A DNA stretch of 64,000 bases, from positions 124,001 to 188,000 of the forward strand of contig JABMLH010000008.1 in assembly GCA_013205085.1 (NCBI GenBank), written 5' to 3'. The notes beneath the pieces were generated by a model. That model was not told the origin of the DNA and did no database searches. It worked only from the letters and a program-made list of their open reading frames with translations. Positions 8,585 to 13,730 of this stretch are shown in pieces. The stretch comes from Microbacteriaceae bacterium VKM Ac-2854. Lineage in GTDB: Bacteria > Actinomycetota > Actinomycetes > Actinomycetales > Microbacteriaceae. Both the position numbers and the translations under genes were made by a program. Numbering within the stretch: position 1 is the stretch's first letter; each line of letters begins with the position of its first letter.

Positions 8585-10045
8585 TCAGCTGCGGGCGTCG
8601 AGGACCCGGCGGAGCCAGTCGAACGAGGCCTTCGGCACACGGTCGTAGCCCATCGCGTCCAGCGCGACGAGGCCGCTCGGCCGCGTGTAGCCGGCCGACC
8701 ATTCGAAGGCGTCGACCAGGGTCCACAGGTACACCGCCTCGAGCGTGACGCCGTCCGCGTCCCCGCCCGGCGCGACAGCCTCCACCAACGCGGCGAGGTG
8801 GCTGCCGAGCCAGCGGATCCGCGCGGTGTCGACGATCGCGCCGTCCCGATCCTGCGCCTCCGGGTAGCTGACCCCGAGCGCGCCGACGACCAGGGGCGGC
8901 AGCGCCTCGCCGTAGCGATCGCGCAACTCGCGCAGCGCGACGCCGAGGAACGACGGCGCGTTCGGCTCCCCCGCGCCGTCCGTCGGGAACTCGGGCCACG
9001 GCTCCCGGTGGAACGGGAACACCGGTGGCGCTCCGACGCCCGTCGGCGCCGACGGATCCCGCCCGGCGGCGATCCGGGCCGGCGGCAGCGGAGCGACACC
9101 GTAGAAGTCCAGCGGAGCGCTGATGCGCACCAGGTCGACGGGGTCCACCCTGGTCAGCGGCTCGAACAGCATCGCCAGTTCCTCGGGCCCGGTCGGATAC
9201 GCGCCGGTGAGCAACGCGTCCGGCACCAGGCGGTTGTGCAACGTATCGAACGCGGCGGCCCAGCTGACGTCGGCCTCGCGGTCGCTCGCCGGCTCGACCG
9301 GGGCGTACGCATCGACGATGCCGATCCGACCGGGCACCGCGGCGGCCCGCAGCGCCTCGACGGCGACTCCGTGGCCGAGCAGCTGATGGTGCAGGGCGGG
9401 CAGAGCGTTGAAGAGCCGCCCGTACCCGGGGGCCTCGGTCGTCAGCGCGTAACCGCCGAGCATCACGGTGGTCGGTTGGTCGAGCGTGACCCAGGAGTCG
9501 ACGCGGTCGCCCAGGCGAGAGGCGAACTCGAAGGCGTAGTCGCCGAAGCGGAAGGCCGTATCGCGATTCATCCAGCCGCCGGAGAACGTCTCGGGCGTGT
9601 CCCGGTGCTGCAGGGTGAGCATGGGGCGGATGCGGGCCTCGGCCAGCGCGTCCAGGAGCCGGTCGTAGAACGCGAGCCCCGCGCGACTGATCGGGCCGCG
9701 GCCGGCGGGCTGGATGCGCGTCCACGCGACGGAGAGGCGCACGTCCTGCACACCCAGATCGACCAGGAGGGCGATGTCGTCGGCGAAACGGCGGTAGAAG
9801 TCGGTCGCGACCTCGGGCGTCGCGCCATCGGCGATCGTGTGCCGCCGGCCGGCGAACTCGTCCCAGACGGTGGTGCCGCGGCCGTCCGCCGCCAACGAGC
9901 CCTCCGTCTGGAATGCGCTGGACGCCATCCCGATCCGCAGCGTCGACGGCAGCAGCGCGCCGAGCTCGCGTGGGTCGTCGAATCGCGCTGCCGCCGTCGC
10001 GGACTCCCGCCGACCGAGCCCGCGCGCGGCGTCGGATCCGCTCAT
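8585..10045 (-). CDS. GH1 beta-glucosidase homologue lacking both catalytic glutamates
   Basis: The whole 486-residue chain follows the GH1 TIM-barrel plan: SSAFQTEGS (42-50), WDEF (61-64), RLSVAWTRIQP (103-113), GGYALTTEAPGYG (197-209), and a C-terminal LWTLVDAFEWSAGY (440-453) with the sugar-binding Glu/Trp. The acid/base motif TxNEP reads TLDQP (187-191) so the Glu is Gln190; the nucleophile motif ITENG reads VGALG (387-391) so the Glu is Ala389; HWDLP is HRDTP. Hydrolysis by the classical retaining mechanism is therefore not expected. It starts ATG 10045 inside the stop of the upstream FAD oxidase gene (ATGA). A sugar-binding or regulatory role is inference. Confidence 0.85.
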   Translation of the reverse strand: MSGSDAARGLGRRESATAAARFDDPRELGALLPSTLRIGMASSAFQTEGSLAADGRGTTVWDEFAGRRHTIADGATPEVATDFYRRFADDIALLVDLGVQDVRLSVAWTRIQPAGRGPISRAGLAFYDRLLDALAEARIRPMLTLQHRDTPETFSGGWMNRDTAFRFGDYAFEFASRLGDRVDSWVTLDQPTTVMLGGYALTTEAPGYGRLFNALPALHHQLLGHGVAVEALRAAAVPGRIGIVDAYAPVEPASDREADVSWAAAFDTLHNRLVPDALLTGAYPTGPEELAMLFEPLTRVDPVDLVRISAPLDFYGVAPLPPARIAAGRDPSAPTGVGAPPVFPFHREPWPEFPTDGAGEPNAPSFLGVALRELRDRYGEALPPLVVGALGVSYPEAQDRDGAIVDTARIRWLGSHLAALVEAVAPGGDADGVTLEAVYLWTLVDAFEWSAGYTRPSGLVALDAMGYDRVPKASFDWLRRVLDARS

Positions 10046-11355
10046 GCGCCGAGCACGCGTTGCAGGTAGGGGTTGCCGAAGAGCCGGTGCGGATCCAACC
10101 GGTCGCGGACGGCCAGGAAGTCGCCGAAGCGCGGATACAGCTCGCGCAACTCGTCGTCGACCCGGTAGTGCAGCAGGCCCCAATGCGGGCGGCCGTCGTA
10201 GTCGCGCATGATCTCCTCGACCGCTCGGAAGTACTCGCCCGCGCTGTCGCGGAGATAGCGGCGCACGCCGATGTAGGCGCTGTCGCGCCCGTACGCCGTC
10301 GAGAGCCAGTTCTCGTCGGCCGCGGCGGTACGCACCTCGATGGGGTACGACACCCGCCACCCGCGCTCCTCGATCAGCCCGCGGATGCGGCGCACCGCTT
10401 CCGGGGCGTGCTCCCGAGCGATCGCGTACTCCATCGCTCGGTAGCGCGGCGGACGCGTCGCGGTGAACACGGTCGCCGAGTGATCGGCGTACTCCCGCCG
10501 AGCCGTGAGCGCCGTGGCAACCCGATTCGCACGCGGCGTCACCACAGGCACGACGCGTCCGGCGACCCCGGCCGTTGTGGTGAGCGCAGCGGCGAACAGC
10601 TCGTCTCGAATGACGCGCGCCAGCAACGGCACCGGGCGACGGCGGGCATCCACCGGCAGCCGCCGATGGGTGCGGGTCGTGGCCGTCTCGGTGTGCGGCA
10701 GCCAGGAGAACGAGAAGTGATCGGCACCGTCGACGCGCTCGGCGAAGGAATCGAGCACGGCGTCCAGCGGTTCGCCGCCCTCCTCCGCGGCGAGCACGAA
10801 CGCGGGAACGCACTGCATCGTCACCTCGATCAGCACCCCCAAGGCACCGAGCCCGAGCCGCACGGCGGGCAGCAACTCGGCGTTCTCCTCCGCGTCGACG
10901 GTGAGCAGTTCGCCCTCGCCCGTGACGATCGTGACGCCGACCACCTGGCTGCCGAGCCCGCCGAAACGCGCACCGGAGCCGTGCACGCCCGTCGAAAGGG
11001 CGCCGCCCAGGGTCTCGCGATCGCTGTCGCCCTGGTTCTGAAGCGCGAGACCGAGCGGCGCGAGAAGGGCGGGCAGCCGGTGCAGCCGGGTTCCGGCCAG
11101 CAGGGTGACCTGCGCGCGCGGGCGATCGACGCGGACGAGGCCGCTCAGGTCGGTCAGATCGAGTTGCACGCCGGGCGCGACCGCGATGCCGGTGAAGCTG
11201 TAACCCGAACCGACGGGCTTGATCAGCATTCCGCCGCGCCGAGCGGCCTGGACCGCGCGCTGCACCGCGCCCGCGTCGGCGGGGCGTTCGATGCGAGCCG
11301 GGCGCACACTCTCGGTGCGGCTCCAGTTGCGCCACACGGCACCTGCTGCGGTCAC
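10042..11355 (-). CDS. FAD-linked sugar-lactone/alditol oxidase homologue (ALO/GULO family)
   Basis: Vanillyl-alcohol-oxidase superfamily: N-terminal PCMH FAD domain with LIKPVGSGYSFTGI (44-57) and LGGALSTGVHGSG (about 115-127), and a C-terminal ALO domain. The position that is a covalent-FAD histidine in GULO and alditol oxidase (GSGHS) is Tyr52, so flavin is probably non-covalent. The E-x-R pair (PIEVR) of the substrate pocket is present, but the family HWxK motif reads HWGL (391-394), replacing the lysine implicated in catalysis in AldO. GTG start 11355; no clear Shine-Dalgarno. It overlaps the degenerate GH1 gene downstream by 4 bp, so the two are made together. Confidence 0.8.
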   Translation of the reverse strand: MTAAGAVWRNWSRTESVRPARIERPADAGAVQRAVQAARRGGMLIKPVGSGYSFTGIAVAPGVQLDLTDLSGLVRVDRPRAQVTLLAGTRLHRLPALLAPLGLALQNQGDSDRETLGGALSTGVHGSGARFGGLGSQVVGVTIVTGEGELLTVDAEENAELLPAVRLGLGALGVLIEVTMQCVPAFVLAAEEGGEPLDAVLDSFAERVDGADHFSFSWLPHTETATTRTHRRLPVDARRRPVPLLARVIRDELFAAALTTTAGVAGRVVPVVTPRANRVATALTARREYADHSATVFTATRPPRYRAMEYAIAREHAPEAVRRIRGLIEERGWRVSYPIEVRTAAADENWLSTAYGRDSAYIGVRRYLRDSAGEYFRAVEEIMRDYDGRPHWGLLHYRVDDELRELYPRFGDFLAVRDRLDPHRLFGNPYLQRVLGA

Positions 11356-11570
11356 CGCTCACCCGCTTCCATCTCGACCGAGCCGTTCATCGGCCCGACC
11401 CGCCATTGTCCCGCATCCCGCCCGCCCCTCGGTTTTTGTCTACCGAGTATGGGTATTTATGGAGAGCGCCGCCGGGGTGGTTGACACCCCACGGAGGCGG
11501 CGACTGCAATGGACACTACGTGACGGCAGGCTTGAGCAGGGCAAGGCAGGGGGCGTCATCGGGATCGCCG

Positions 11571-13730
11571 ATGAGCTCTGTTCGGCGCGCCGCGCGGCTC
11601 GCCCTGGCTGCGCTCGCCGCAATGGCCGGACTCCTCGTGACCGCTCCGATCGCCTCCGCAGCCGCGCTCAGCATCGATTCGCCGTCAACGGGCACTTTGC
11701 TCGATTCCGGTACCGTCACGGTGACCGGCAGCGGCAGCGCCGGCAGCCAGATCCAGGTCTCCGATGCGAGCGGCGGCGATCCGCTCTGCATCGTGACCGT
11801 CGACGCGGCGGAGAGCTGGAACTGCGGCCTCGACCTCGGCGACGGCCCGCATCGACTGACGGCGGCGGAGCTGCTCGCGGACGGCTCCACCTCCGCCACC
11901 TCGATCGACATCGCCGTGCTCTCGCCGCCCGTGATCACCTCCGTCGACGGCGGGACGACGTCGGCCGGCTCGGTCGGTGGCTCGGCGTACCCCGGCGCGA
12001 CCGTGACCGCGACGACGACGGACGGCTCCGCCTCGTGCAGCACGAGCGCCGACGCGAGCGGAAAGTGGTTCTGCCAGCTGGTGCCGGCGTTGGGCGCGGG
12101 CGACTACTCCGTCTCGGCGACGCAGTCGGCCGCATTCGCGAACGGAGCGAGCTCGCCGGCGAGCGCTGCCGTGACGCTGACCGTCGACGCCGCCCCTCCG
12201 GCGGCACCGACGATGACCTCCCCCACGAGTGGCGGCACGCTGCCGCTCAGCGGCGCGAGCTACAGCGGCACCGGCGAAGAGGGCACCACCGCCTACGTCT
12301 ACGTCGACGTGGTGAACACGTGCGAGGCACCCGTCATCGACGGCACCTGGACCTGCACCGGCGGCGTCGTCGAGCCGGGCTCGCACCGGGTCTCCGCGAT
12401 CCTCGGCGACGCCGCCGGCAACTACGGCCCGCCGAGCGCCTGGATCGACGTCGTCTTCGCGGACGCGAGCCCCACGCCGACCGCCACTCCGACTCCGACC
12501 GGCAGCACGAGTCCGACCGGCAGCGCGACACCGACGGCGAGCGCGAGCGCCTCCCCGACGCCCAGCGCGACATCCTCCGCAGGGCAACCGACTCCGAGCG
12601 CCACCTCATCGACCCCGGCCAAGGGCGGCGCGACTCCGAGCAGGACCGGTACGCCGTCGGCCCCGCGCCCGAGCGACGGCGAAACCGCGCTGCCCGCACT
12701 CCCCGGCGCGCCGTCGGACGGCGCCCAGCCCGCTCCCTCGGTGCCCGAGCCCCTCTCCGGCGGCGACGTCGAGGGTGGCTGGAACGCAGCGACGGGGATG
12801 ACCACCGCGCTGACCGCGCGCGCCGAGCTGGGCACCTTCTCCGACTGGGTCCGCTCGCTCGCCCTGGCGGCGATCTCCCTCGCGCTGGTCGTGGTTCCCG
12901 CCCGTCTCGCGGCCGGCTCGCGCGCCCCGCGAGAGAGCAGTGCGCCGCGGTGGCAGCTCACCGGACGCAATCGGGCCCGGGTCGAGTTCGAGACGGTTCC
13001 GGAGGCACCGGCGCTCAGTCGGCGAACCGTCGCGGTCGGCGTGATCGGCTGCGCCGCCGGGCTGGTGCTGCTCTCCGGTCCGGTGAGCGATCAGCCCGCC
13101 TACATCCGACTCCTGATCGCCGTCGTCGTCGCGATCGTCGCCGTCAACGTGGTCGCCGCGGGCGTTCCGGCCTTGGTGGCTCGGAGACTGGCGGTCGGCT
13201 CGGTCGCCGTCGTGCCGGCTCCGAAGGCCCTCCTGATCGTGGCCGCCGCCGCCCTCGGCTCGCGCTTCGCGGGCTTGGATCCCGCGTTCCTCTTCGGCGT
13301 CGTCGTCGGCCTCGCGCTGGCACCCTCGGCGTCCGCGGCCGATCGGGCCAAGCTCGCGACCGTGCGCGTCGTCGCCCTCCTCGCTCTGGCGGGAGTCGCC
13401 TGGGCGCTCTCCGGAGCGGTCCCCGCCGACGGCACGTTCGTGGCGACGCTGCTCGCTGAGGTGTTGTCGGCGACCACGCTGCTCTCGATCGGCTCGGCGG
13501 TGGTGCTGCTGTTCCCGATCGGGCGCCCGGCCGGCCAAGCGATCCTGCGCTGGTCGCCGGTGCTGTGGCTCGGGCTGACGCTGATGAGCTACACGGTGCT
13601 CTTCCTGCTGCTCACCCCCACCCTCGCCGCCTGGCAGAGTGGCGGCGGCGGCGCGGTCGTCGCACTGATCGTGGTCGGCTTCGCCGCGGTGTGCACCTCG
13701 GTCTGGGCGTGGCGCCGCTTCGTGGAGTGA
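11571..13730 (+). CDS. Secreted Ig-like repeats fused to multi-TM domain
   Basis: A 719-residue envelope protein. A signal peptide (MSSVRRAARL then a hydrophobic run to IASAA, cleavage near 31) is followed by three Ig-like/adhesin-type repeats of about 90 residues, each with paired cysteines, a Pro/Ser/Thr linker at about 300-400, and a C-terminal half with some seven membrane helices (from about 425), including LDPAFLFGVVVGLALAP. The layout resembles actinobacterial proteins described as FGLLP-motif membrane proteins, though the exact motif is not intact here. The ATG 11571 is chosen for the signal peptide; no strong Shine-Dalgarno precedes it. Function unknown; surface exposure with an integral anchor is the safe reading. 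Confidence 0.75.
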   Translation: MSSVRRAARLALAALAAMAGLLVTAPIASAAALSIDSPSTGTLLDSGTVTVTGSGSAGSQIQVSDASGGDPLCIVTVDAAESWNCGLDLGDGPHRLTAAELLADGSTSATSIDIAVLSPPVITSVDGGTTSAGSVGGSAYPGATVTATTTDGSASCSTSADASGKWFCQLVPALGAGDYSVSATQSAAFANGASSPASAAVTLTVDAAPPAAPTMTSPTSGGTLPLSGASYSGTGEEGTTAYVYVDVVNTCEAPVIDGTWTCTGGVVEPGSHRVSAILGDAAGNYGPPSAWIDVVFADASPTPTATPTPTGSTSPTGSATPTASASASPTPSATSSAGQPTPSATSSTPAKGGATPSRTGTPSAPRPSDGETALPALPGAPSDGAQPAPSVPEPLSGGDVEGGWNAATGMTTALTARAELGTFSDWVRSLALAAISLALVVVPARLAAGSRAPRESSAPRWQLTGRNRARVEFETVPEAPALSRRTVAVGVIGCAAGLVLLSGPVSDQPAYIRLLIAVVVAIVAVNVVAAGVPALVARRLAVGSVAVVPAPKALLIVAAAALGSRFAGLDPAFLFGVVVGLALAPSASAADRAKLATVRVVALLALAGVAWALSGAVPADGTFVATLLAEVLSATTLLSIGSAVVLLFPIGRPAGQAILRWSPVLWLGLTLMSYTVLFLLLTPTLAAWQSGGGGAVVALIVVGFAAVCTSVWAWRRFVE

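What the first reader, a model, noticed from the sequence alone, without database searches (positions are those of the whole stretch)
8585..11355. Coupled pair: catalytically dead GH1 homologue and FAD oxidase with altered key residues
The GH1 fold is intact over 486 residues and keeps much of the sugar-binding pocket (FEW, WDEF), yet both retaining-mechanism glutamates are replaced (acid/base Gln190 in TLDQP, nucleophile Ala389 in VGALG). The partner oxidase overlaps it by 4 bp, has Tyr52 where covalent FAD histidine occurs and HWGL where HWxK is usual. That two coupled enzymes of sugar chemistry both changed catalytic positions, without frameshifts or stop codons, suggests a reassigned function (sugar sensing, a non-hydrolytic reaction with the lactone oxidase, or a scaffold) rather than decay.
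Basis: partly seen in the sequence, partly recalled or inferred. Interest (0 to 1): 0.7.

Follow-up and report, generated by a model that had tools for sequence, protein, structure and literature searches.

The report
Retained dead β-glucosidase beside altered oxidase
A sugar-cutting enzyme in a plant-associated bacterium has lost both of its cutting residues, yet its close relatives keep the protein and the wider family shows the same loss happening several separate times, so it probably does a job other than cutting sugar.

Summary
In detail: the GH1 protein (8585-10045, -) has Gln190 and Ala389 where retaining GH1 enzymes carry catalytic Glu, and it overlaps by 4 bp an ALO-type oxidase (10042-11355, -) with Tyr52 and Leu394 for His and Lys. 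Relatives split the story. All 15 held genus genomes (Rathayibacter by kin titles) have the GH1 gene; all 13 full-length rows lack at least one catalytic Glu, whereas 14 of 14 other GH1 loci examined keep both. dN/dS of dead pairs is low (0.05-0.21), as in active ones. The oxidase survives in 2 of 15, and its Tyr/Leu pair occurs in the window alone (1 of 56). The ancestral family arrangement is a TetR-MFS-PLP-oxidase-GH1 cluster with intact GH1. Across 91 family rows Glu loss needs at least 6 changes (5 firmly); at this chromosomal place the oxidase is missing only where GH1 is dead (23 of 35 dead, 0 of 43 intact). Best reading: a GH1 pseudoenzyme kept for a non-hydrolytic role that no longer needs the oxidase; the window oxidase changes separately. 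Ligand or partner unknown.

The parts
8585..10045 (-). GH1-fold pseudo-glycosidase, 486 aa
9476..9478 (-). Gln190 codon at the acid/base position
   Evidence: alignments; follows strand 184-189
8879..8881 (-). Ala389 codon at the nucleophile position
   Evidence: alignments; in strand 385-390
10042..11355 (-). ALO-type FAD oxidase homologue, 437 aa, GTG start
   Evidence: an ALO relative lies upstream of GH1 in 21 of 21 nearest non-genus loci
11200..11202 (-). Tyr52 codon at the flavin-linking His position
   Evidence: His in 55 of 56 ALO rows, Tyr here
10174..10176 (-). Leu394 codon at the HWGK Lys position
   Evidence: Lys in 55 of 56 ALO rows, Leu here
10042..10045 (-). 4-bp overlap ATGA of oxidase stop and GH1 start
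   Evidence: sequence read
11406..13730 (+). divergently transcribed neighbour (open frame limits; the true start probably lies inside), a landmark beside the cluster in much of the family
   Evidence: cluster I; bacterial Ig-like Pfam hits (Big_6, Big_13) were obtained on relatives in L122 and L103, not on the window protein

Best explanation
The window GH1 is a pseudoenzyme. It descends from an active beta-glucosidase-type enzyme that was the last gene of a TetR-MFS-PLP-oxidase-GH1 cluster in Microbacteriaceae. On the stem of this genus the pocket was remodelled and catalytic Glu were lost; the barrel and several recalled glucose contacts (Gln46, His147, Trp441, Glu448, Trp449) stayed, and new pocket residues (Arg148, Asp189, Asp245, Ala318, Leu320) became fixed. 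It cannot work as a classical retaining glycosidase. Shown: the residue changes, retention in the genus, low dN/dS, repeated loss elsewhere in the family, loss of the cluster around it. Inferred: that it now works by binding, most likely a glucoside-like or acidic ligand in the remodelled pocket, or a protein partner, as sensor or scaffold, without the oxidase. The window oxidase is a late remnant of the cluster: it lacks the flavin-linking His and the Lys of HWGK, so covalent flavin and normal oxidase activity are unlikely, though it is not drifting neutrally.
For: Retention: 15 of 15 genus genomes. Catalytic states in 13 full-length genus rows: Q/A 7, Q/E 4, E/S 1, S/A 1; 14 of 14 other GH1 loci examined in these genomes are E/E. 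dN/dS (Nei-Gojobori) of 17 chosen dead pairs 0.048-0.214, of 13 chosen intact pairs 0.066-0.174. Of 156 columns conserved in at least 95% of 43 intact syntenic rows, 106 are unchanged in all 13 genus rows, 13 carry a new fixed residue and 37 vary. Ten of 14 recalled pocket positions are invariant in the 13 genus rows, five of them as a new residue. Tree: 53 rows E/E, 38 lost, fewest changes 6. Oxidase near GH1: 43 of 43 syntenic intact rows; among 38 dead rows 12 yes, 23 no, 3 at contig edges. Window oxidase: 17 of 106 near-invariant columns changed against 0 of 102 in sister G010; one-sided changes 45:10, for GH1 8:11; end branch 0.358 against 0.059.
Against: No ligand, partner or expression data. 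Pocket invariance in the genus (10 of 14 against a 55% background) is no clear excess; no test was run on it. Two of 15 genus copies (G003, G014) are split between reading frames, real breaks or assembly errors. Catalytic positions still vary inside the genus, and 4 of 13 rows have Glu at the nucleophile position, so residual or altered catalysis there is open. In other dead lineages some recalled sugar contacts are lost, so a shared binding role is not shown. The link of GH1 loss with oxidase loss rests on few independent events: 1.9 of 5 pairs agree, none opposes, sign test not significant; 10 intact GH1 rows at other chromosomal places have no oxidase and were set aside. Codon ML did not show a raised omega on the window oxidase branch (0.084 against 0.052, 2 dlnL 2.2), though omega = 1 was rejected (2 dlnL 37.9); its branch lengths were saturated.
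Confidence: 0.7

Rival explanations
1. Slow decay: the whole cluster is being lost and the GH1 gene is simply the last piece to go, without function.
For: In 13 of 15 genus genomes no oxidase of this group is found, and no TetR, MFS or PLP cluster gene was matched in the fetched flanks of those 13, three of which soon reach a contig end; 2 of 15 GH1 copies are split; catalytic positions vary; the window oxidase changes fast.
Against: dN/dS of 0.05-0.12 in the 7 pairs of genus members without the oxidase; 106 of 156 family-conserved columns unchanged in all 13 genus rows; 13 of 15 frames open.
Confidence: 0.15
2. New catalysis: the remodelled pocket carries out another reaction, for example a myrosinase-like cleavage with Gln in place of the acid/base, or a non-hydrolytic step using Asp189, Asp245 and Arg148.
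For: Four genus rows have Gln at the acid/base and Glu at the nucleophile position, the plant myrosinase pairing (recalled); Arg148, Asp189 and Asp245 are fixed in 13 of 13.
Against: The window and 8 other genus rows have no Glu at the nucleophile position, and in the window no acid lies within 6 residues of it; both catalytic positions differ between close species, unlike an active site in use.
Confidence: 0.1
3. One reading: GH1 and oxidase work together in a reassigned sugar reaction or sensor.
For: Overlapping genes; the pair is conserved in many genera; omega = 1 is rejected for the window oxidase.
Against: 13 of 15 genus genomes keep GH1 without this oxidase; the oxidase changes occur in one genome only; conversely, oxidase relatives outside the tabulated GH1 genomes had no GH1 in the fetched flanks (20 of 20 larger stretches, 29 of 30 smaller ones with 1.5 kb flanks, the exception being the window genome).
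Confidence: 0.05

Closest known systems
GH1 beta-glucosidases, nearest solved Cba3 of Cellulomonas biazotea (8znv)
   Different: Both catalytic Glu replaced; against intact family members also Trp148 to Arg, Asn189 to Asp, Asn318 to Ala, Tyr320 to Leu, Asn446 to Ala
Klotho proteins, GH1-fold pseudoenzymes of animals (recalled; only a search listing was seen)
   Same: GH1 fold with lost catalysis and a non-hydrolytic role
   Different: Bacterial, partner unknown; here lost repeatedly within one bacterial family
Plant myrosinases (recalled)
   Same: Gln at the acid/base position
   Different: Myrosinases keep the nucleophile Glu; the window does not. Both positions match only in 4 of 13 genus rows
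Bacterial alditol / aldonolactone oxidases (AldO type, 8ot8; TIGR01679)
   Same: Family score well over cut-off; His-linked FAD and a catalytic Lys are described for 8ot8 (PMC10771423, passages; that this Lys is the one of HWGK is recalled)
   Different: Tyr52 and Leu394 in the window. A non-His residue at the first position has precedent: the dehydrogenase lineage has Leu (PMC11099136, passages; aligned to Tyr52)

Membership tests
Glycoside hydrolase family 1, by descent and fold | GH1 profile match and (beta/alpha)8 barrel | tested here: met
   PF00232 298.4 bits, cut-off 22.6; model and structural match
Glycoside hydrolase family 1, active retaining enzyme | acid/base Glu after strand 4 | tested here: not met
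   Gln190
Glycoside hydrolase family 1, active retaining enzyme | nucleophile Glu at strand 7 | tested here: not met
   Ala389
NCBIfam GH1 beta-glucosidase equivalog TIGR03356 | score over 478.5 bits | tested here: not met
   335.3 bits
Myrosinase-like GH1 | Gln acid/base with Glu nucleophile | tested here: not met
   window Q/A; Q/E in 4 of 13 genus rows
Pseudoenzyme with a non-hydrolytic role | catalytic residues lost, protein kept under purifying selection | tested here: met
Pseudoenzyme with a non-hydrolytic role | binding function shown | not testable with these tools
   needs experiment
Bacterial FAD-linked oxidoreductase TIGR01679 (oxidase) | score over 292.25 bits | tested here: met
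   390 bits
Covalent-flavin aldonolactone/alditol oxidase | flavin-linking His | tested here: not met
   Tyr52; His in 55 of 56 rows
Covalent-flavin aldonolactone/alditol oxidase | Lys of HWxK | tested here: not met
   Leu394; Lys in 55 of 56 rows

The most novel reading that the evidence does not exclude
In one bacterial family the GH1 enzyme of an oxidase module has repeatedly and in parallel been turned into a stand-alone binding protein: substrate pocket first (possible intermediate L116), then the catalytic Glu, then loss of the partner genes, while the dead barrel is kept. This would mean that the ancestral enzyme already had a second, non-catalytic job that outlives its chemistry.
Probability: 0.35. 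Interest if true: 0.75.

Novelty: new variant of a known kind. Interest (0 to 1): 0.58.

Why it matters
Here several apparently separate conversions of the same bacterial gene into a pseudoenzyme can be compared with active orthologues at the same chromosomal place, including a possible intermediate and graded loss of the partner genes. That makes the question of why a dead enzyme is kept directly testable, and it warns against annotating these proteins as beta-glucosidases.

Tried and rejected
Misalignment of the nucleophile: rejected, the motif aligns without gaps and no acid lies within 6 residues. Strain-specific decay of GH1: rejected by genus-wide presence and dN/dS. Coupled change of both genes: rejected, the oxidase changes are private to the window. 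A foreign oxidase in the window: not supported, window and G010 oxidases are sisters with SH-aLRT 100 in a quick tree. Literature: searches on GH1 pseudoenzymes, on this gene pair or its cluster gave listings in which I saw nothing on this system, and one search found no paper; only titles and opening abstracts were seen, one search showed 12 of 64 papers, and most subscription papers are not held. One search (8ZNV) found nothing; two searches found the two oxidase papers used. Codon ML gave saturated branch lengths, so I lean on the pairwise values. A wrong frame was translated once and set right.

Limits of the sample: of 98 non-genus genomes with a GH1 match, 80 were fetched and tabulated; 18 were left out (one, G354, was seen as intact). 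Four partial rows (L078, L079, L133, L164) were dropped before the tree. Ten intact rows at other chromosomal places were kept in the tree but set aside in the oxidase count. The ALO stretches were picked from oxidase hits outside the tabulated GH1 genomes, so they do not sample the family evenly. Backbone support is weak: losses nested in g38/g84, g8, g77 and g12 are well supported, while g1, g35 and g78 could share one older loss; hence 5 firmly and 6 by parsimony, by my reading of the supports; no AU test was run. Pocket positions were chosen from recalled GH1 contacts. Other GH1 loci of the genus were examined in 14 cases, not all that one search listed.

Full report

The genus. The window genome has 4.75 Mb. 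Of nine kin loci in named records, eight are titled Rathayibacter and the nearest is Microbacteriaceae bacterium VKM Ac-2855, so the window is Rathayibacter or near it. All 15 held genus genomes have the GH1 orthologue: 86% identical in G010, about 68-72% elsewhere, split into two pieces in G003 and G014. In the 13 full-length rows the acid/base and nucleophile letters are Q/A 7, Q/E 4, E/S 1, S/A 1. Fourteen other GH1 loci of these genomes that I examined are E/E, 14 of 14. Trp148 to Arg, Asn189 to Asp, Asn245 to Asp, Asn318 to Ala, Tyr320 to Leu, Asn446 to Ala and Arg456 to Pro are fixed in 13 of 13.

The partner. A close relative of the window oxidase is found only in G010 (74%); in the other 13 genus genomes the best match is 30-33% identical. 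G010 keeps MFS, PLP and oxidase genes before GH1; the window keeps only the oxidase; in the other 13 none of these genes was matched in the fetched flanks, three of which soon reach a contig end. The G010 oxidase has His and Lys. The window oxidase differs at 17 of 106 near-invariant columns, G010's at 0 of 102; window-only against G010-only changes are 45:10, whereas for GH1 they are 8:11. End branches are 0.358 and 0.059. Pairwise dN/dS for the window-G010 pair is 0.231 for the oxidase and 0.146 for GH1. Codon ML rejects omega = 1 on the window oxidase branch but does not show it raised. So the oxidase is altered and fast, not neutral.

The family. 108 of 398 family genomes match the window GH1 at E 1e-90 or better. 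In the 21 nearest non-genus loci an oxidase 50-61% identical to the window's lies upstream of GH1, and in most of them GH1 has NEP and a Glu-bearing TE(G/N/S)G motif. The full cluster is TetR, MFS, PLP (Ala_racemase_N) protein, oxidase, GH1, beside an Ig-domain gene and LemA-HtpX (the names LemA and HtpX come from reading, not from a profile search). In 50 further ALO stretches a GH1 match was found only in that of the window genome, 1 of 50, within the fetched flanks, while the PLP gene was matched in 49 of 50, all but the window genome. The oxidase itself is common: 212 of 398 family and 118 of 297 order genomes at E 1e-80. GH1 therefore looks like the accessory part of the module.

Repeated loss. 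In 91 rows (4 partial rows dropped) 53 are E/E and 38 have lost one or both Glu; both trees need at least 6 changes. Lost are 13 of 13 rows of this genus, 6 of 6 of g35 (its weakly supported sister), 9 of 9 of g78, 4 of 4 of g84, 4 of 9 of g8, 1 of 10 of g12 and 1 of 7 of g77. Outgroup rows are E/E, so I read these as losses. Most dead copies share flanking genes with intact ones. Pocket residues around 318-320, 358-360, 446-450 and 456-457 change in parallel in several dead lineages. L116 of g8 keeps both Glu but already has His189, Asp318, Leu320 and Arg441, which looks like an intermediate. The oxidase is near GH1 in 43 of 43 syntenic intact rows; among 38 dead rows it is present in 12, absent in 23 and undecided in 3 at contig edges. 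By independent pairs the link is not significant (1.9 of 5 agree, 0 oppose).

Selection. Nei-Gojobori dN/dS is 0.048-0.214 for 17 dead pairs and 0.066-0.174 for 13 intact pairs. These are chosen close pairs, not all pairs. Dead GH1 is thus about as constrained as active GH1, also between genomes that have lost the oxidase (0.05-0.12 in 7 pairs). The stem of the genus is long (0.58) against mostly short branches within it, as expected of a burst of change followed by constraint.

Mechanism. I conclude that the protein is a pseudoenzyme with a binding role. What it binds is inferred: recalled glucose contacts Gln46, His147, Trp441, Glu448 and Trp449 are invariant in 13 of 13 genus rows, and a new Arg/Asp pair (148, 189) is fixed, which would suit a glucoside-like or charged ligand; a protein partner is equally open. 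In other dead lineages these contacts are partly gone (Gln46 to Lys and His147 to Asp in g35, Trp441 to Arg in dead g8 rows), so the retained role may differ between lineages or may not need the pocket.

Literature. PMC10771423 (passages) describes His-linked FAD and a catalytic Lys in an AldO-type oxidase (8ot8); PMC11099136 (passages) describes Leu against His at the flavin position in lactone dehydrogenases and oxidases. Searches on GH1 pseudoenzymes and on this gene pair or cluster listed nothing that I recognised as this system.

Noticed in passing
L116 (G258): GH1 with both catalytic Glu but an eroded pocket (His189, Asp318, Leu320, Arg441 in window numbering): a possible intermediate before catalytic loss.
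   Followed up: partly
L073, L075, L076, L077: Four genus members have Gln at the acid/base but Glu at the nucleophile position, one clade among Ala/Ser rows: either kept or regained; the myrosinase pairing (recalled).
   Followed up: no
G003:C1:658346-659778 and G014:C173:1446-2878: The genus GH1 orthologue is split between two frames in these two genomes; real break or assembly error, not resolved and not mended.
   Followed up: no
G000:C17:194576-195748 (L080), about 6.6 kb past the window end: Another, distant GH1 of the same genome with intact INEP and TENG motifs.
   Followed up: yes
L173 (G050:C3:238009-240835): Two tandem GH1 matches downstream of one oxidase.
   Followed up: no
L167, L168, L171, L172, L174, L175 (g35): Most extreme dead GH1: TLRTP and LSGLD-like motifs, Lys, Asp and His at recalled sugar contacts, no module genes matched in the flanks, yet low dN/dS in 3 pairs.
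   Followed up: partly
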